Positions 50,000-60,289 of a stretch of 64,000 nucleotides of DNA are shown piece by piece (position 1 is the first letter of the stretch; each line of letters begins with the position of its first letter). The translations under genes were made by a program, and so were the position numbers. The notes below the pieces were generated by a model. It ran no database searches. It saw nothing but the letters and a program-made list of their open reading frames with translations, and had not been told where the DNA came from. The DNA comes from Obelidium mucronatum. Its lineage: Eukaryota > Chytridiomycota > Chytridiomycetes > Chytridiales > Chytriomycetaceae. The stretch spans positions 124,001 through 188,000 of the forward strand of contig JAIVFH010000059.1 of assembly GCA_025765595.1 (NCBI GenBank). The letters run 5' to 3'.

Positions 50000-50002
50000 C
50001 GA

Positions 50003-50640
50003 TTCTCCGAACCAGCCCAATTCCCCAAAGCAGCCCAATTAGGCTGCCTAATATTCCGAACCAGCCTAATATTTCGAACCAGCCCAATTCCCCAAAGCAG
50101 CCCAATTAGGCTGCCTAATATTCCGAACCAGCCCAATTCTCCAAAGCAGCCCAATTAGGCTGCCTAATATTCCGAACCAGCCCAATTCCCCAAAGCAGCC
50201 CAATTCTCCGAACCAGCCCAATTCCCCAAAGCAGCCCAATTAGGCAGCCTAATATTTCGAACCAGCCCAATTCCCCAAAGCAGCCCAATTAGGCAGCCTA
50301 ATATTCCGAACCAGCCCAATTCCCCAAAGCAGCCCAATTAGGCTGCCTAATATTCCGAACCAGCCCAATTCTCCAAACCAGCCCGATTCTCCGAACCAGC
50401 CCAATTCCCCAAAGCAGCCCAATTAGGCTGCCTAATATTCCGAACCAGCCCAATTCTCCAAACCAGCCCAATTAGGCAGCCTAATATTCCGAACCAGCCC
50501 AATTCCCCAAAGCAGCCCAATTAGGCTGCCTAATATTCCGAACCAGCCCAATTCCCCAAAGCAGCCCAATTAGGCTGTCTAATTCCAAAGCAGCCCAATT
50601 CAAAAGCAGCCTAATTCCAAAGCAGCCCAATTTGGCTTGT
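50003..50640. repeat. Minisatellite, about 49-bp unit
   Basis: Roughly a dozen tandem units built from CCGAACCAGCCCAATT, CCCCAAAGCAGCCCAATT and AGGCTGCCTAATATT blocks, with some units partly deleted and AGGCTGCC alternating with AGGCAGCC. It starts at the edge of the 3' LTR. The AGG(C)TGCCT and AGGCAGCCT parts are near-palindromic. Confidence 0.92.
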
Positions 50641-51338
50641 GGTTTTGTATATAATAACACTGCCTTTTCTTGTGAAAATAAAGAAGTTATGGTATATCTG
50701 TTGTGTCATTTGCTTTTGAACCAGTGGGTGGCCAGTTCAATCCCCGTGCCTTCTATCTTGGATTTTCAGGTTTTTCTCTTTGAAACTTAAAGTAGAAACT
50801 GAAATATTTTTTTTTGGTCAAGGTAAGGTTTAAAAAGATTAATTCATAGAAGTTATGTGTATTTGTACAAAAAATATCAGCAAAGTTTGAATTATTGTCT
50901 CAACTTATACCTTGTTTTTACCTGCATAAACACACATCACCATAGCTCAGTAGGTAAGGCACATCCATGAGGTGTGGCCAGGGGTTCAAGTCCCACAGTT
51001 GGCCACTTTTATCATAAAAATTTCCGGAGAAACCCTAACTCTCCCCAACCTCCCCCATGAGTAAAGAACCCTAATCCTAGTCCTACCTTAAAACCTCTCC
51101 TGTGCGCAAGATAAAGAAGATTACTGGCCTGGCCAATCAGATCGCAAGGAATGCCCAGGAACTGTTGCCCTCCTCAGGATTAAGAGTGCAGAGACTCTCC
51201 ATTCAAAAAATGAATGATAAAATAGGCAATAAAATCAGAAAAATATGTTTTGAATAAAGAGCCAATGAAGAGCAAGAACAGGAAATGAAAAAATAAATCA
51301 GAAAGATTAGGAAAATCAATCAAGTTTGACAATGATTC
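50641..51338. other. Intergenic region with SINE-like, tRNA-derived sequences
   Basis: No protein gene. A pol III-type pair, A-box TAGCTCAGTAGGTAAGGC (50944-50961) and B-box GGTTCAAGTCCC (50983-50994), lies in a tRNA-like context whose stems are imperfect. A second B-box-like GGCCAGTTCAATCCCC is at about 50730-50745. Both look like SINE heads. Confidence 0.5.
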
Positions 51339-53323
51339 CTAAATGGAATCTGTACTGCCTAAATCAGCAAGGCTGTCAGTGATATTGGGCGATAACTCTT
51401 TGTCATCAAGCATTTGATGTTGAAACATCCTGTGTAGCCATTGTTTTGCCTTTTCTGAACTTTTTTCTACTCCTTCCCCATACTGATACATGAGCGAGAT
51501 AGTGTGTTGCGCTGTTTCTGAACCATTCTCAGCTGCAGCAAGATACCATCTGAATGCTTCCACAGCACTTTTCTGGATTCCATACCCATTCTTGTATATT
51601 TCACCTAGTGAAAGCTGAGCCTCAATAATTCCTTCATAACCTGCACCTGCTTTGACAAGCCACGCAATTCCCTTGATCACATCTTGGTTCATCCGATCCC
51701 CTACGTATAGCATCAATCCGATGTGCCACTGAGATGTTTTGCAGCCTTTTTTGGATGCCCTCACATAGAATTGTTTGGCCAGCTTTGAGTTTTGTCCAGT
51801 TCCCAGACCTTGTTGGTACATCCAACCAACCATTCGGAGTCCGTCTCAATCATTTAATTCAGCAGATGCGAGGTAATACCTAAATGCACGTGTGGTGTCT
51901 TTTGTTGTCCCACGTCCATTTAGGTAAATGTCGCCCAACAATTGCAATGCACCTGAGCATTTTTGAGATGCCGCCAATTCGGCAAAGTGAATTGCCTTTT
52001 CGAAATCCAATTTGATGCCATCTCCGTCATGATACATTTCGGCAAGCTCTAGTTGCGCTCGAAAGTCGCCTTCCTTTGCTAAGTCTTCAAGCCACTTAAT
52101 GGCCTTGACTGCATCTTTTTCGACTCCTTCTGTTTCGCTGCCTTCTCGGTAAAGTTTTCCAAGTATGTACTTTGCGTCCATATGACCAAGATCAGCCGCA
52201 TATTCTAGCTTTTCAAGCCCCTCTGTTGCTTGACCACGATCAAGCAGGTTACATCCCTCTAAATAAAGTGCGTTTGAATTTCCGCATCTAGCTTGCTCTT
52301 GGATTGTTTTTGGTTGATCTGCTCTCATTGCGGCAGGTGTCTCAGCAGGGGTTTCTGTCACAATATGTAACTTTGACTCAACACACTCTTTGATGTTCAA
52401 ATACTTTCCAGAGGAGAATCCAACTTTATCCTGTGTTGTATCAATCCACTACAACCTTTTTTTAGTATCTAAGACAATCGCGAAATTCTCACATAATGAT
52501 TCCCAACCAAGTTTTTGTGCTTGTCGTCGAAGTGAAAGCCGCCCTTGGCGCCGACAACAATAATTTGATAGTTGGGAGAGTAATTAGGCCCGTTTCTTGT
52601 AATCAGTTCGAATTCAAGCCAGCAATTAGGTGATTTCATATATTCCTCTGAAATACAAATGAGTCCCAGTTTCGCTGGAAAAAAGAGTTTCAGATACCAT
52701 ACATTTTAATACCTGGCATTTTATACCTGATTTAATATTTCTCTTCATTTCCTCGTCCAAATCTTGGCCCTCTCGAAAGCGATTTACATCAAGAAACGAA
52801 ATGATGCCATCTGCTGTTAGTCTGCCCGCAAGATCGCGAGGATCACACCCCTATGATTCATACGTCATTTTAAATTGCAGTTGGAAAAAGTGAGAGTTCA
52901 TACCCCAATATTACACGTTTCAGGATTGACTTGACCTAATTCCAAGGCTGATCTCGAGTTCAACCAACAGTAACTAACAAATACAGAGTGCTCCAATTTT
53001 GAGGAAACACCAGCGAGGTCTATAGGTGCTATTGTGACAGCCTTCTTTGGTTTGGCTGGAAGAATCGGAGGGAGTGCGGTGTAACTCTGTTTTGTTGTTG
53101 ATGCTGATCGGCTCCGCGATTTCAGTGCAAAAAGGGAAGTGGAAGCGCGAACGCTTTCATTGATGCTTGTTGCGGAAACGGAATCTTGACGCGACTTTGG
53201 TGGTGATGCTGAAGGGCTTGGCCAATTACTGGACAAAACGCTCTCGGCTTCTTTCGCCAGTGGAATTGATGCCAACTTATCAGCTACATAGCCTATATTG
53301 CCTTCTATGTTGTTATCTTTCAT
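51339..53323 (-). CDS. TIR-domain Sel1-repeat protein with an in-frame TGA
   Basis: Exons 52904-53323, 52727-52850, 52493-52674 and 51339-52448. Residues 1-110 are Ser-rich and disordered. A TIR domain covers about 112-260: HSVFVSYCWLNS, CDPRDLAGRLTADGIISFLD, FREGQDLDEEMKRNIKSAKL and SPNCWLEFEL, where Glu202 (SxxCxxE) matches the NAD-cleaving Glu of catalytic TIRs. From about residue 300 come Sel1-like repeats (AKYILGKLYREG, AQLELAEMYHDGDGI, ALQLLGDIYLNGRGT). At codon 443 a TGA (51846-51848) stops the frame; the same frame then continues with more repeats (MVGWMYQQGLGT, AQLSLGEIYKNGYGI, AQHTISLMYQYGEGV) to TAG at 51339, 611 codons in all. Truncation, readthrough or sequence error are all possible. 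Divergent from the GTPase-lipase gene. Confidence 0.85.
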
Positions 53324-53916
53324 TTTATGAAAGGGATTGTTTGAGATTATCGCCCCGATACACAACGCGTTCCCTTTTTGGGGATTGCCATACAACTGCA
53401 AATCTCATAGAAACGCATCTCTTTTGCGCCGCTACTCTATTCATAGAATTACAATGATGACTTTTGTGTGATCGCCATACAGCTGCAAATCTCAACAGAA
53501 ACGCATCTTTTTCGCACCGTGACGCCATTCATTGAATTAGAATGATGTCTGGGGGATTTATGGCTCACTTTTAAGCGCTGATGCAGATGCCAGGAGTGAC
53601 AAATGGCTGCCGCGTGTACCGATTCCTGGCACCCAACGGTTCAACTGTCAGTTGTATATTTTCACACTGTTTTCAGTTCATAAATTTGTGTATCATTTAT
53701 TAAGCTCTCACGTGTAAAAAGAGCATGCAGTACTTCTGGAGGCTTGTCGGAGTTGTTCTGAGCTCCTCGCCCTTTCCTTTACCAGCGTTATAGATTTTTT
53801 GGAGCTTTTTCGATAAGTGAATAACACTCTACACGATTCCCGAACTTTCCCCCTACTTCGCGAAGTTGCTTCTTCGCTCCAAGCGCCAGCCTGTGCCGCC
53901 AAAAGACAGCAAGCAA
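53324..53916. promoter_or_regulatory. Divergent intergenic region, TIR-Sel1 / GTPase-lipase
   Basis: 593 bp separating two divergent starts. It contains an imperfect tandem repeat of about 80 bp (53385-53461 and 53464-53545; shared GCCATACA.CTGCAAATCTCA and AGAAACGCATCT blocks). The rest is unassigned. A common control region for both genes is an inference from the layout. Confidence 0.45.
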
Positions 53917-56900
53917 ATGAACGTGTTTGGCAGCATCACCAGCGCCACGTCCACAGCCTCGACTGCCGCGGGGTCTGGGTGTCTTGTCTGCAACGAAGCG
54001 GCGTGGCGCGGCCTGGCGCCCGTCTTTCCGGGCGACGCAGCGGCGCTCGAGCAGCTCGGGCGCGCGGACGAGTTCCTGCGGCGCATTGCGGGGTTCGAGG
54101 CCAGCTGCGGCCAGTGCGCGGCGCTGCCGCTCGTTGCGCTGGTTGGGCTGACGGGCGCCGGCAAGAGCACGCTGCTGAACGTCCTGGCGCGCCGCAGCGC
54201 CTCGGCGCGGCTGCAGCCGAGCGGCGCCGTTGCGCTGGCGTTTGCCGACGAGGCTTCGCCCGTGTCCGCCGGAAACACGTCCGCGACCGCCTTTCCGGTC
54301 TTCAGCCGCACGCCCGCCGCCGTCCTGGCCGACTTCCCCGGCTTCCTCGACAACCGCGAGGGCGCCCTCGAATTCGTGCAGAGTCTGCTGATGGCGAAAC
54401 TGCTGACCCGACGCGATACTGTAGTGGTTCTAGTCAAGTCGCTGACCGCTGACCGCGACTCGAGTTTTCTGTCGTTTTTGGATTCAGGCTTAATGGTTCC
54501 GGGCTCGTGCATGGTCGTTTTTACAAAGGCGAAACCAAAGTCGTCCACAAACTGGCTGGATTATATTGACGAAGCAACAGATTCTGAGCTGAGAAACCGT
54601 TTGGTTTCGAAATTCAAAGCTCCAAACTCTCTCCCGTGTGTCAAGATGCTCCAACCGGACTACTACAATTCTCTGCGCGATTTGAATACTGTGTTTCTTC
54701 CTTCAATACTGCAGCCATTATCGAGGCTTTATTCACGCGCAAAGCCACTATCATCTCTTGTTCAGCCATCTCCTACAATACAGAAGTTTGCCCACGAAGC
54801 ATTAAAGAATCTGCGAGTATTGATTGAAGATGAACTGAGCAGCCAGTTGGAGGTTGCGTTTCTTTCATACCAGTTCCAGCCCTATAATATAAGTGCCATA
54901 AAGACGCTTTTGTGTGGCAGCTTTGAAACCCCTGAACCCATTGTGACATCATTGAAAATGCTCGGCATGATAAAAGACACAGTGTCCCATTCTGGCGAAG
55001 ATTCGCTCACGAAATACTGTCGCTACTGGGCGCTCTTTCACACAACGCATCTTTGCCATCAAGAGTCGCTGACATGTGGAAACTTTATCCGTCCCAACCT
55101 CACGGAGAAACTGTCTCAAATCACGAGCAACCCACCTTCCCTGAGCGTCGATATTCCACTTTCCATGCCACTCCATGCGAAATTAGCACAATGGACGGAA
55201 ACCCGCGAAACCTTCCATCTAGAATACGTCAGCTATAAAGGCCAGCTTCAAGTGTTGCTTGGAAATGCGAGAAGAACAGGGGATCCGTACGGAGTGTCGA
55301 TTGGCGAATGTAAACGCCTCGTTTTATATCGTTTGGAAAAGTGTGGTTACATGGAAGAGGCGTGGTGTTTGGTGGCTCGCGCTTTGCAACAGGTTATGGA
55401 TAAACCGCGGCATAGTCCAGAACGTGCTATTGGGGATGCCGAAGCGATAGAAATGGATATTTTGTCAAGTAACGGGATGAAAGAAAAGGATTGGGACTTT
55501 GAGTTTTTAGGCAAATTGATGAATGAGGATGCTGTAAGTGCCATGTTTCGTTTTCTTTCTCCTTTTTTGTGTATTGGGTTGACTAAATTTTATGAAATTA
55601 TACATAGTTGCGGGAACTATTAAAGCTTGGCTTAGAAAATCGTGGAAGTATTGGAAATGTCATCATGATGCTTGGTGGAGTGGGTATGACTGGCGCTGCA
55701 GCGGCGTTTGAAGGGATGACTGGTATAGTTGCTGGAAGTGCTCGCACCGGAATCGCTCTCGAAATAGGATCCACCGCAATGGTCGCCGGCACTTTGGTTA
55801 CAGTCGTGGCTGTGGCGGCAATCGCCAACTATGTATATGTGCGAAACCAGCGAGGAAAGCAATTGGCAGAGGGAGGTGTCATTGGACTGGATTTTAGTGA
55901 GTTCGGGTTGGAAAAGGATGTCTGGAAAGCCGTTTTGAATCATTTAGATGTTTCAAGCCCTGAACAAGGTTTGCACTGACGGTTTTTGGGAACATCCTAA
56001 CTTCATTGCGCTTCCAAAATAGTTGCAACCGCGACAGCAAGGATAGAAAGCCTCTTTAAAGTCTACGAAGAAAAGTTTTCTTGGGATCTGATTGAGAAAC
56101 GGCGCTTGATTGATGTTCGTTTTTTGGAAATGCGAGACATCAAAGAAGACTCCAACGACAAAGAGAGTATTGTGAAAAGCTGGGTGAACGTGGTAGCGTC
56201 CAACCAAAAGCTGATGCACACGATTGTCAGTAAACTCAAAGGCCGTGCCAAAAACGTGTCCGGGTGCAGTTTCATGGAGCATTCTCTTGTAGATGAGTAC
56301 AGGTTCTTTCCTGTCACTGCCTCTTGCTGCCGATACCTGTCCCCATCGGGAGCAAAACGGTGTATCCACTGCAATAACTACTTCCATGACTCTCAATCAA
56401 ACAAGCAATGCTTGATTGATGCTCGGGCTGTTCTATGCAAAGACCGAATGGAGAATCCAGAACAACTTTCTGCTGCGGCCGCTTCGAAAGTAGAAGTTTT
56501 CTTTTACGACGACAAGAGCTTTCCGGTGGTAGATTGGCGCCGCCTTCCCAATTCATACAAACGTGAATCGATCCGTCTTTCTGCTGCCGCCTACGCCCCC
56601 AAAGATATGAGCACGGTTGTTGATGTGAACGACAAGGAAAACAACATCCGTTACATGATCACAGTCATTGATGGCGTTGCATACGTGGTATTCCGTGGAA
56701 CCGAGCCTTCTTCCTCCCAAAATTGGCTCCAAAACGTAACCTTCAGTCTCACTGATTTCGAAGATTGCACTTTTCATTCGGGATACTTTCGACTCTGCCA
56801 ACAGATCCTTGACACGGTCTGGCGGCGAGTTCTGGATTTGGAGTGTTCCCAGGTTATCTTCACGGGTCACAGTTTGGGGGGCGGTTTGGCGCATACGTTG

Positions 56901-57458
56901 CACTTGCTTTGCCTTTTGACGAAATTTGAGACCACGACACTACCGATTTTATCGATTGGGTTCGGGTCTCCGCCACCGTTTGGGAAAAAGACAATCAAGT
57001 TCTTTGATGCCCATAATTTGCATGGGCGGTTTATCACTTTTGCGAATCAAGGAGGTAAAAATTCGTATGCATACTTTTTCAAAAAAGCATTTTTTTAATC
57101 TGTCTTTTCAGACCCGGTGCCAATGGCGTTTAAAGCCGTAGAATATATCGAGCAGCAGCTCCAACAGTCCACAACAACAGCCGCAACTTCATTTCTCTCC
57201 CAGGAATTCCGAACAGCTCTCAACGTGGCCATGTTTGTCCCCAAAGTAATGAGTTCCGCGTACGGCTACCCAGGGACATTTATTTTTTTTGATGGCAGTG
57301 TTCGAAATATGATGGGGAATGGAGAGCAAGCGATATTATGGAATCATGAAGCCGTTTCCAAGTGGTTGAGTTTGACAAGGGTTGAAGATTGCGCTGTGGA
57401 GAAGCATCATGTTACAAGGTATCAACGGTTTATTGACTTCCAGTACCCGTTGGCTTGA
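53917..57458 (+). CDS. P-loop GTPase fused to a class 3 lipase
   Basis: Exons 53917-55533, 55608-55968, 56023-57054 and 57112-57458 give 1118 residues. Residues 70-300 form a G domain: Walker A GLTGAGKST (77-85), switch/G3 DFPGF (139-143), VVLVKSL and a G4-like VFTKAKP, closest in style to dynamin/IRG/septin-like large GTPases. A helical middle part follows. Residues about 545-625 are Gly/Ala-rich and hydrophobic (GNVIMMLGGVGMTGAAAAFE, then TAMVAGTLVTVVAVAAIANY), likely membrane-inserting. The C-terminal third is a class 3 (fungal) lipase: YVVFRGTE, nucleophile Ser943 in TGHSLGGG, Asp1004 in NQGDPVP and His1102/1103 in EKHHVTRY. A Cys-rich patch (CCRYL, CIHCNNYFHD) lies before it. Intron 2 has a CCTAAC branch. 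I know no standard family with this order. Confidence 0.9.
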
Positions 57459-57776: not shown

Positions 57777-58511
57777 ATGGACTCTGATGATCTGGCCGCT
57801 GTCGCATCTACGCTCTTGGAGTCTCTACACCTTAGCGACGATGCATACTCTGAATACATTGCGCAGCTGGCAGACGATTCGTCCATGAGCACCGATGAGA
57901 AGCAAGAGATTATTGTAGAGTTCCTCAGCGACGCCATTGAAGACTCGGCGACGAAACAAGGAATAGAAAGCGTTGTCGCTGAGCTTTTATCCAAACTCGA
58001 GAATGCAAAGGAAGCTCGGGAGCAAGCTGCTGCGGCCGCCAAAGCGGCAAATGCAGCTGAAGCTCAATCCCAGCCTCCAAGTTCGTCAACGGTGGAACTC
58101 CAAGTGGCACAACAGCCAGCAAAGAAAGTGTTATCAAAGGAAGAAAAGAAGGCTCGGGAGCGGCTGCTGCGGGAGTATGGATACGAGGTTGATGAAGTTG
58201 TTGAAAACGAACATGGTGAAACGGAATTCCTCTATTCGGGTGGCGGTTCTAGCAAGGCTTCTCTGCCTGAAACGATGCAAAATACCAACGCCCAAAGAGT
58301 TAAGGAAGCTGAGCAGCAGAGGCGCCAGAAGCTGGCAGCAGGTCATGCTGCAGAGGTATTCCCAGAAAACCCACGACACACCAACCGTTTAACCCGTCCT
58401 TCGTTAATCAATTTCTAGGTCGAACGTAATAAAGCTGCACGTCAGAAGCAGCTGGATGATGCAGAAAAGAAAAAGAAGAAGACTGTAAAACAAGAAAAGC
58501 GACGCATGTGA
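57777..58511 (+). CDS. CCDC43-like coiled-coil protein
   Basis: Exons 57777-58355 and 58419-58511 (63-nt intron) give 223 residues. The N-terminal helical domain (DDLAAVASTLLESLHLSDDA, YSEYIAQL, EIIVEFLSDAIE) matches the layout of CCDC43: a short helical domain, an Ala-rich linker, SKEEKKARERLLREYGYEVDE, and a Lys/Arg/Glu coiled coil ending KKKKKTVKQEKRRM. The family has no known enzymatic role. Assignment rests on architecture and the EEEK-x-R-x-x-LL-x-x-Y motif. Confidence 0.75.
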
Positions 58512-59263: not shown

Positions 59264-60289
59264 ATGACAAGCTGGTTCTCGCGAGACAAGCCGCCGCCGC
59301 CGCCGCCGCCATCGCTCGCGCGGTCGCAGTCGCAGTCGCAGTCGCAGTCGCAGTCGCAGGCGCGCAGCGAGTCGCAGGCGTCGAACGCAAACGCAGCCGC
59401 AGCCGCAGACACCGCCGCCGCCGACGGGCAGCGCGGCCGCCGCTCGCAGTCGCAGGCGTCGCTGCGCAGCGGCGGCTCGCGCTCGACACGTTCGCGCTCA
59501 AAGGGCGGCGGCGGCGGCGGCTGGTTCGGCAGCGGCAGCGGCGGCATCTCCGCCGACTCCGCAGAGACTTTCACGCTGGCGCGGCCGCCGCCGGGCCCGA
59601 GAACCCTGCGCCACGCGGCGGCGCCTGCTCCCACCAACAACATGTCAAGCCCAATCACCCCGCTGCCCCCGCCGCCCTCGCTTCTCACGGCCCAGCAGCC
59701 CCTGCACATTGCCCCCAAAGACTACATTGCCCTGTCCATCTACTTCCACGAACAAACCCCACACATGGACATCGCCACTTACTACGCCAGTCTCAGTGCC
59801 GCCTCAGGAAACAGCGTCGGCCTCTTTCTCTACGGAATTGCTCTACGCCATGGCCAGGGTGTACCCCAGGACTCGAAACTGGGAGTCGAAATATTATCAA
59901 AGAGTGCCGATGCTGCAATGGGAATGTATTCTACGTCTGCAAATGGTGGATCAATAGGATTCACAGATACCCTATCTAGATTGCCTGGTACGGGTGCTGT
60001 ACGGGCCCTCGCCAAAAAAGAACTCGGTGCTGCGTTGTTTGAACTGGGAAACTGCTATCAAAATGGGTGGGGAGTGAACGTCAGCCTACATACGGCCTTG
60101 TACTACTTTATCGTTGCCAGTGGTCTTGGGGAAGTGGATGCACACGTTACTTTGGCGGATGCTTACATGCGGGGTGAGTTGGGTGTCAAAGTTGACAAGA
60201 AGGAAGCTGCAAAATACTATCGGTTAGCTGTTGAAGCGGGTTATAAAGAACCTGGATTGCATTGGATATATAAAGAAAAGTGGAAGTAA
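59264..60289 (+). CDS. Sel1-repeat protein with disordered SQ-rich N-terminus
   Basis: Single exon, 341 residues. The first 130 residues are low complexity: polyPro (PPPPPPPSLA), an SQ dipeptide run, Ala and Gly runs and RSKGGGGGGW, in GC-rich codons. Sel1-like repeats follow: MDIATYYASLSAASGNSVGL, LYGIALRHGQGVPQDSKLGV, ALFELGNCYQNGWGVNVSLH, and AHVTLADAYMRGELGVKVDK with AKYYRLAVEAGYKEPG. Such proteins are adaptors, e.g. of the fungal Chs4/Skt5 or Dsf2 type. It carries no TIR domain, unlike the Sel1 gene at 51339. Stop codon is 22 bp from that of the convergent DUF255 gene. Confidence 0.83.
   Translation: MTSWFSRDKPPPPPPPSLARSQSQSQSQSQSQARSESQASNANAAAAADTAAADGQRGRRSQSQASLRSGGSRSTRSRSKGGGGGGWFGSGSGGISADSAETFTLARPPPGPRTLRHAAAPAPTNNMSSPITPLPPPPSLLTAQQPLHIAPKDYIALSIYFHEQTPHMDIATYYASLSAASGNSVGLFLYGIALRHGQGVPQDSKLGVEILSKSADAAMGMYSTSANGGSIGFTDTLSRLPGTGAVRALAKKELGAALFELGNCYQNGWGVNVSLHTALYYFIVASGLGEVDAHVTLADAYMRGELGVKVDKKEAAKYYRLAVEAGYKEPGLHWIYKEKWK

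What the first reader, a model, noticed from the sequence alone, without database searches (positions are those of the whole stretch)
51339..57458. Divergent TIR-Sel1 and GTPase-lipase gene pair: candidate immune-like module
Seen: a TIR domain with an intact SxxCxxE glutamate joined to Sel1 repeats, head-to-head with a P-loop GTPase fused to a class 3 lipase with an intact Ser-Asp-His triad and a hydrophobic segment between. Known: catalytic TIRs cleave NAD or make signalling nucleotides; Sel1 repeats are adaptors; dynamin-like GTPases and phospholipases act on membranes in defence and cell-death systems of bacteria, animals and fungi. Inference: a TIR sensor/enzyme and a membrane-attacking GTPase-lipase effector under one control region could be a fungal non-self or virus response. 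Location beside a transposon island fits a fast-evolving locus.
Basis: partly seen in the sequence, partly recalled or inferred. Interest (0 to 1): 0.82.

Follow-up and report, generated by a model that had tools for sequence, protein, structure and literature searches.

The report
Chytrid TIR-Sel1 gene beside GTPase-lipase

Summary
The window is from the chytrid Obelidium mucronatum. Gene A (minus, 53323-51339) encodes TIR plus Sel1 repeats with the SxxCxxE glutamate. Gene B (plus, 53917-57458) encodes a P-loop domain, a long middle part with a hydrophobic stretch, and a class 3 lipase with Ser-Asp-His. Two points were missed: A has an in-frame TGA (51846-51848) inside its Sel1 repeats, and B's G4 motif lacks the guanine-binding Asp in 5 of 5 sequences. 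The pairing is not supported. B is single copy, with relatives in five other genera of the same family. In the Entophlyctis gene models the 5' neighbour of B is the gene that lies 3' of B here. A-type proteins were found only in Rhizoclosmatium, where the neighbourhood could not be read. Among 28 TIR and 25 class 3 lipase matches in this genome, no other pair lies within 40 kb. The stronger finding is outside the pair: TIR-Sel1 is a chytrid family with swappable partners: TIR-Sel1-GTPase on contig C36, kinase-TIR-Sel1 in Siphonaria and Physocladia, TIR-Sel1-metacaspase in Rhizophlyctis. An immune or cell-death-like role is plausible, not shown.

The parts
51339..53323 (-). Gene A, TIR-Sel1; exons 53323-52904, 52850-52727, 52674-52493, 52448-51339 (introns of 53, 52 and 44 nt)
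   Evidence: public model P0008 (BDR26DRAFT_920967) agrees except around the stop
52613..52615 (-). Codon of the putative catalytic glutamate of the TIR domain (E202 in SPNCWLE)
   Evidence: Sequence, model, motif
51846..51848 (-). In-frame TGA inside the Sel1 repeats; frame and similarity to P0010 go on behind it (54.8% of 157 before, 57.9% of 164 after, no gaps)
51339..52448 (-). Last exon of gene A, which holds the end of the TIR and the Sel1 repeats
   Evidence: Pfam Sel1 77.6 and 80.5 bits on the pieces before and after the stop; Sel1 proteins are the best PDB sequence matches of P0008
53324..53916 (.). Stretch between the two start codons, 593 bp; two copies of an 88-bp repeat at 53376-53547
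53917..57458 (+). Gene B, P-loop/lipase protein, 1118 aa; exons 53917-55533, 55608-55968, 56023-57054, 57112-57458
   Evidence: P0001 is identical to the last 960 residues; Siphonaria P0002 matches at 76% over 100% of the query
54145..54168 (+). P-loop (G1, GLTGAGKS) of gene B
55650..55838 (+). Gly/Ala-rich hydrophobic stretch (residues 554-616)
   Evidence: Read by eye in the translation; same place in the relatives
56682..57131 (+). Class 3 lipase domain (residues 880-1010, across the last intron); Ser943 codon 56871-56873
57777..58418 (+). First open stretch of the gene 3' of B; its Entophlyctis relative is joined, in the gene model, to the 5' end of the GTPase-lipase
   Evidence: 46% identity over 198 columns; no Pfam family

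Best explanation
Two genes with separate histories happen to lie head to head. Gene A is a member of a chytrid TIR-Sel1 family: a TIR domain with the glutamate used by NAD-cleaving TIRs, held by a Sel1 solenoid that would bring TIRs or clients together. In fused relatives the same pair is wired to a GTPase, a kinase or a metacaspase, so the family probably works as a signalling enzyme in a stress, non-self or cell-death response. In this assembly A carries a stop in its Sel1 repeats, so it is decaying, truncated or mis-sequenced. Gene B is a conserved single-copy protein of the Chytriomycetaceae in which a P-loop nucleotide-binding domain and a long, partly hydrophobic middle part would control a class 3 lipase at a membrane; a general lipid or membrane function is more likely than an immune one. 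Shown: domains, motifs, the stop, copy number, distribution in the searched databases. Inferred: all activities and roles.
For: Domains and gene models. B single copy in the own genome; the A-B stretch has no second copy. B: 7 proteins at E <= 0.001 among 7994 candidates scored (own 1; Siphonaria 76%, Podochytrium 61%, Rhizoclosmatium hyalinum 59% of a partial model, Physocladia 52%, Entophlyctis 43% and 44%), all in one family (R. hyalinum by its genus). A: 3 proteins among 4982 candidates, own plus two Rhizoclosmatium (that search admits lengths of about 243-774 only, so long fusions cannot appear). Entophlyctis P0005 and P0007 join a relative of the window gene at 57777 to the 5' end of the GTPase-lipase. 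Of 25 Lipase_3 matches only this one and C37:91340 share a contig with a TIR place (28 TIR_2 matches, plus the spliced TIR of A), the latter about 44 kb from it. TIR-Sel1 with other partners: P0011 GTPase, P0012 Peptidase_C14, P0013 and P0014 kinase. SxxCxxE kept in 5 of 7 aligned TIR-Sel1 proteins.
Against: A TIR-GTPase link does exist in this genome: three of four TIR-Sel1 units on C36 are followed on the same strand by a P-loop GTPase, and at least one is a single fused protein by the public model. B's P-loop domain shows profile similarity to that GTPase over the P-loop to DxPG part (hhalign probability 95.8%, 72 columns, 28% identity). Adjacency in Rhizoclosmatium could not be read, and only Entophlyctis shows the 5' neighbour of B. 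B was found only in one family, so it is not shown to be an old housekeeping gene of fungi at large.
Confidence: 0.75

Rival explanations
1. A and B are one two-gene immune-like module: a TIR product or Sel1 contact switches on the GTPase-lipase, which attacks membranes.
For: Head-to-head genes 593 bp apart with TIR and lipase motifs intact; TIR-Sel1 joined to a GTPase elsewhere in the genome; weak lipase match to plant PAD4 (20.7 bits) and EDS1 rows in Foldseek (E 0.43 and 0.48).
Against: B present in genera where no A-type protein was found; other 5' neighbour in Entophlyctis models; different contigs in Siphonaria and Physocladia for the kinase-type TIR-Sel1 proteins; stop in A; fungal lipases score higher than PAD4 (25.3 bits).
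Confidence: 0.08
2. A is a pseudogene in this isolate (compatible with the best explanation).
For: In-frame TGA; both Rhizoclosmatium gene models lack the stretch with SxxCxxE.
Against: No other stop or frameshift in the four exons; similarity after the TGA is as high as before it, so the stop is recent or an error.
Confidence: 0.3
3. The TGA is removed by splicing, as in the public model, and A is a full protein with one shortened repeat (also compatible).
For: P0008 has this intron, GTGCAT...GAG, 45 nt, in frame.
Against: It drops a stretch that both Rhizoclosmatium proteins keep; by eye its ends are weaker than those of the other introns; it may be the gene caller's way round the stop.
Confidence: 0.15

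Closest known systems
Chytrid TIR-Sel1-GTPase P0011, TIR-Sel1-metacaspase P0012, kinase-TIR-Sel1 P0013 and P0014
   Same: Same TIR subtype (SYCWxNS, CDPRxLA, LDVxR) and Sel1 repeats
   Different: A lacks the extra output domain, as do its two Rhizoclosmatium relatives
Catalytic TIR domains (SARM1, plant TNL, bacterial TIR NADases; recalled)
   Same: TIR_2 profile over cut-off and the SxxCxxE glutamate
   Different: Joined to Sel1 repeats; activity untested
Prokaryotic vWA-MoxR conflict systems, iSTAND type (PMC7159879; passages seen)
   Same: Use TIR, caspase-like peptidases, AIG-type GTPases and Sel1 repeats among their parts
   Different: Multi-gene prokaryotic systems; the chytrid proteins are single-gene fusions, and AIG1 is under its Pfam cut-off in the one C36 GTPase frame where it is listed (21.9 vs 27)
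Fungal NLR/HET proteins (PMC9815663, PMC4986451; passages seen)
   Same: TIR or TIR-like heads in fungi; TIR in NLRs of Chytridiomycota is mentioned in print
   Different: A has no NACHT or NB-ARC part; another TIR gene of this genome has (L044)
Class 3 fungal lipases (Thermomyces-type and Rhizomucor-type PDB entries; organism names recalled)
   Same: Lipase core and triad
   Different: Here the lipase follows about 880 residues with a P-loop domain
Dynamin-like proteins (5oxf, MxB, dynamin-1)
   Same: Among the first Foldseek rows on a low-confidence model (mean pLDDT 46.4)
   Different: Dynamin_N under cut-off, G4 Asp missing, rmsd of these rows 27-41 A

Membership tests
Catalytic TIR enzyme | TIR profile match over the curated cut-off | tested here: met
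   TIR_2 45.8 bits vs 28
Catalytic TIR enzyme | Glutamate of SxxCxxE | tested here: met
   SPNCWLE in A; both Rhizoclosmatium models lack this stretch
Catalytic TIR enzyme | NAD cleavage or nucleotide signal product | not testable with these tools
   Needs an enzyme assay
Chytrid TIR-Sel1 family (defined here) | Shared TIR subtype and Sel1 repeats | tested here: met
Chytrid TIR-Sel1 family (defined here) | Uninterrupted reading frame | tested here: not met
   In-frame TGA 51846-51848
Class 3 lipase | Lipase_3 profile and Ser-Asp-His | tested here: met
   50.3 bits vs 22; triad candidates invariant in 5 of 5
Dynamin superfamily | Dynamin_N profile over cut-off | tested here: not met
   14.2 bits (window) and 19.1 (P0002) vs 27
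Dynamin superfamily | G4 motif (T/N)KxD | tested here: not met
   TKAK, TKAK, TKAK, TKAT, TKAN
Dynamin superfamily | Stalk and membrane-binding fold | tested here: inconclusive
   Model too weak
EDS1/PAD4 family | EP domain behind a lipase-like domain | tested here: inconclusive
   PAD4 matched in the lipase part only and below fungal lipases; EP domain not sought by itself
Fungal NLR | NACHT or NB-ARC domain | tested here: not met
   None listed for A or B
Conserved two-gene defence module | Adjacency kept in relatives | tested here: not met
   Entophlyctis models have another gene 5' of B; Rhizoclosmatium not readable

The most novel reading that the evidence does not exclude
Chytrids own an enzymatic-TIR signalling system in which one core, TIR plus Sel1 solenoid, is fused to exchangeable outputs (P-loop GTPase, metacaspase, kinase), a eukaryotic single-gene counterpart of prokaryotic conflict systems; gene A is its free-standing form, possibly working in trans.
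Probability: 0.35. Interest if true: 0.78.

Novelty: new variant of a known kind. Interest (0 to 1): 0.5.

Why it matters
In the papers seen here fungal immunity is described mainly through NLR and HET proteins. A chytrid family that couples a TIR with an intact glutamate directly to a GTPase, a kinase or a caspase-like protease, seen in two orders (Chytridiales and Rhizophlyctidales), would give a simple, testable link between TIR signalling and cell-death proteases in an early fungal branch. The pair given, by itself, is ordinary: two neighbours.

Tried and rejected
Literature: ten searches. By title none of the papers listed is about TIR-Sel1 fusions in fungi; one search listed 20 of 1,730 papers, (TIR domain + Sel1 repeat) two papers that I did not open. 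Six papers were opened for passages only. The library is open-access only, so this does not show absence in print.

Prokaryote genomes: a scan with the chytrid TIR alignment matched 23 stretches by pattern, none confirmed by tblastn. Structure: both models were weak (A mean pLDDT 51.8 with residues 1-298 under 50; B 46.4), so Foldseek rows are hints only; the A model gave mostly Sel1-type and other helical repeat proteins and no TIR in the 50 rows shown, the B model one match at E <= 0.001 of 416 at E <= 10. PADLOC gave matches of 12.5-28.4 bits to the P-loop, TIR and Sel1 parts, not taken as membership. Rfam at gathering scores and ARAGORN found nothing in the window. NCBIfam gave no row over its cut-off among those shown (25 of 26 for P0002).

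Rejected or not upheld: B as a proven dynamin; B as an EDS1 relative; the public 45-nt intron as the likely answer to the TGA.

Full report
What the window is. Both genes match Obelidium mucronatum proteins at 100% on a contig of 221,468 bp, the length of the window's contig C59; it is a chytrid of the family Chytriomycetaceae.

Gene A. Four exons on the minus strand give TIR plus Sel1 repeats. The TIR has SPNCWLE. A TGA at 51846-51848 interrupts the Sel1 part; the 168 residues behind it keep frame, and similarity to the Rhizoclosmatium protein P0010 is as high after it (95 of 164) as before it (86 of 157), so the change is recent or an error. The public model avoids it with an intron that drops the TGA and 14 residues before it, a stretch which both relatives keep. 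The two relatives, P0009 and P0010, end like A and have no further domain. Both lack the stretch with SxxCxxE, and neither lists a TIR family in Pfam at E 0.01; whether this is a real loss or a fault of the gene models cannot be told.

Gene B. Four exons give 1118 residues. The public model lacks the first 158, with the P-loop; the Siphonaria relative supports my start. G1, G3 and the lipase triad are invariant in 5 of 5 aligned sequences, the Asp of G4 is absent in 5 of 5, and two Cys/His clusters, before the P-loop (CxxC, CxxC) and before the lipase, are invariant. The GTPase profile passes its cut-off only just in the window protein and not in P0002 and P0005. B is single copy here. Six related proteins from five other genera were found, all of one family; P0006 is partial and lacks the P-loop and the GHSLGG motif, P0005 and P0007 are fused gene models.

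Are they a pair? Two Entophlyctis gene models fuse a relative of the window's next gene (57777) to the 5' end of the GTPase-lipase, so there another gene on the same strand takes that side; the link between B and that gene is kept, in another order. The R. hyalinum model runs on into IP3-receptor-type domains at its 3' end. In Siphonaria and Physocladia the TIR-Sel1 proteins found, of the kinase type, lie on contigs of other length than B. Within this genome 28 TIR_2 and 25 Lipase_3 matches share only the contigs C59 (here, by the spliced TIR of A) and C37, about 44 kb apart there. The window's own TIR is not among the 28, being split by introns. Both lists are lower bounds.

The TIR-Sel1 family. 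On C36 four TIR places with Sel1 frames lie in tandem on one strand; three are followed by a GTPase frame. For the first, my spliced model agrees with the public protein P0011 over its first 987 of 996 residues, one TIR-Sel1-GTPase protein. An automatic model of the second also joins them, with a doubtful junction at the P-loop; the third was not modelled; the fourth has no GTPase match and its model was poor. Further places of this GTPase subfamily, four matches on C77, were not read. A search with the TIR of the first unit gave 4 proteins among 271 candidates: P0011; a Rhizophlyctis TIR-Sel1-Peptidase_C14 protein with YSGHG and DCCHSG; and kinase-TIR-Sel1 proteins of Physocladia and Siphonaria with HRD and DFG. 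The TIR_2 score of the Siphonaria one, 26.3, is under the cut-off of 28. C37 here has kinase, TIR and Sel1 frames, and C282 near-identical TIR and Sel1 frames.

Catalytic glutamate in the genome. Of 28 TIR_2 matches 27 were held. By my motif reading 19 keep the glutamate (four with His where Cys stands, some read past a stop that may be an intron), 2 have Asn, and 6 could not be read. Several contig pairs (C37/C282, C74/C278, C60/C636, C84/C319) look like duplicate or allelic copies, so the number of genes is lower.

Reading. The pair is best seen as neighbours; the TIR-Sel1 family is the part worth following. Its domain mix resembles prokaryotic conflict systems that use TIR, caspase-like, AIG GTPase and Sel1 parts (PMC7159879, passages). 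TIR in NLRs of Chytridiomycota is already mentioned in print (PMC9815663, passages), and an earlier survey found no NLRs in chytrids (PMC4986451, passages). All functions remain inferred.

Noticed in passing
G000 contig C36:112000-127000 (L032, L033): Tandem array of four TIR-Sel1 units, three followed by a GTPase frame; one is a single TIR-Sel1-GTPase protein (P0011)
   Followed up: yes
P0012 (Rhizophlyctis rosea): TIR-Sel1-metacaspase fusion with YSGHG and DCCHSG motifs
   Followed up: partly
L034 (C37), L035 (C282): Kinase, TIR and Sel1 frames on C37; near-identical TIR and Sel1 frames on C282
   Followed up: partly
L044 (C74), L045 (C74), L041 (C84): TIR_2 and NPHP3_N/NACHT in one frame (L044); NPHP3_N/NACHT frames at or near TIR matches (L045, L041): TIR-NLR-like genes in a chytrid
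   Followed up: partly
G000 contigs C26 and C398: Clusters of Peptidase_C14 (metacaspase-like) matches; 18 in the genome, none on a contig with one of the 28 TIR matches
   Followed up: no
window 50780-51200: Dispersed repeat 3' of gene A: 44 matches in the genome, own place included
   Followed up: no
window 50002-50632: Dense tandem repeat array
   Followed up: no
window 53376-53547: Two copies of an 88-bp repeat between the two start codons
   Followed up: no
window 59264-60286: Another Sel1-repeat gene close by, without TIR
   Followed up: no
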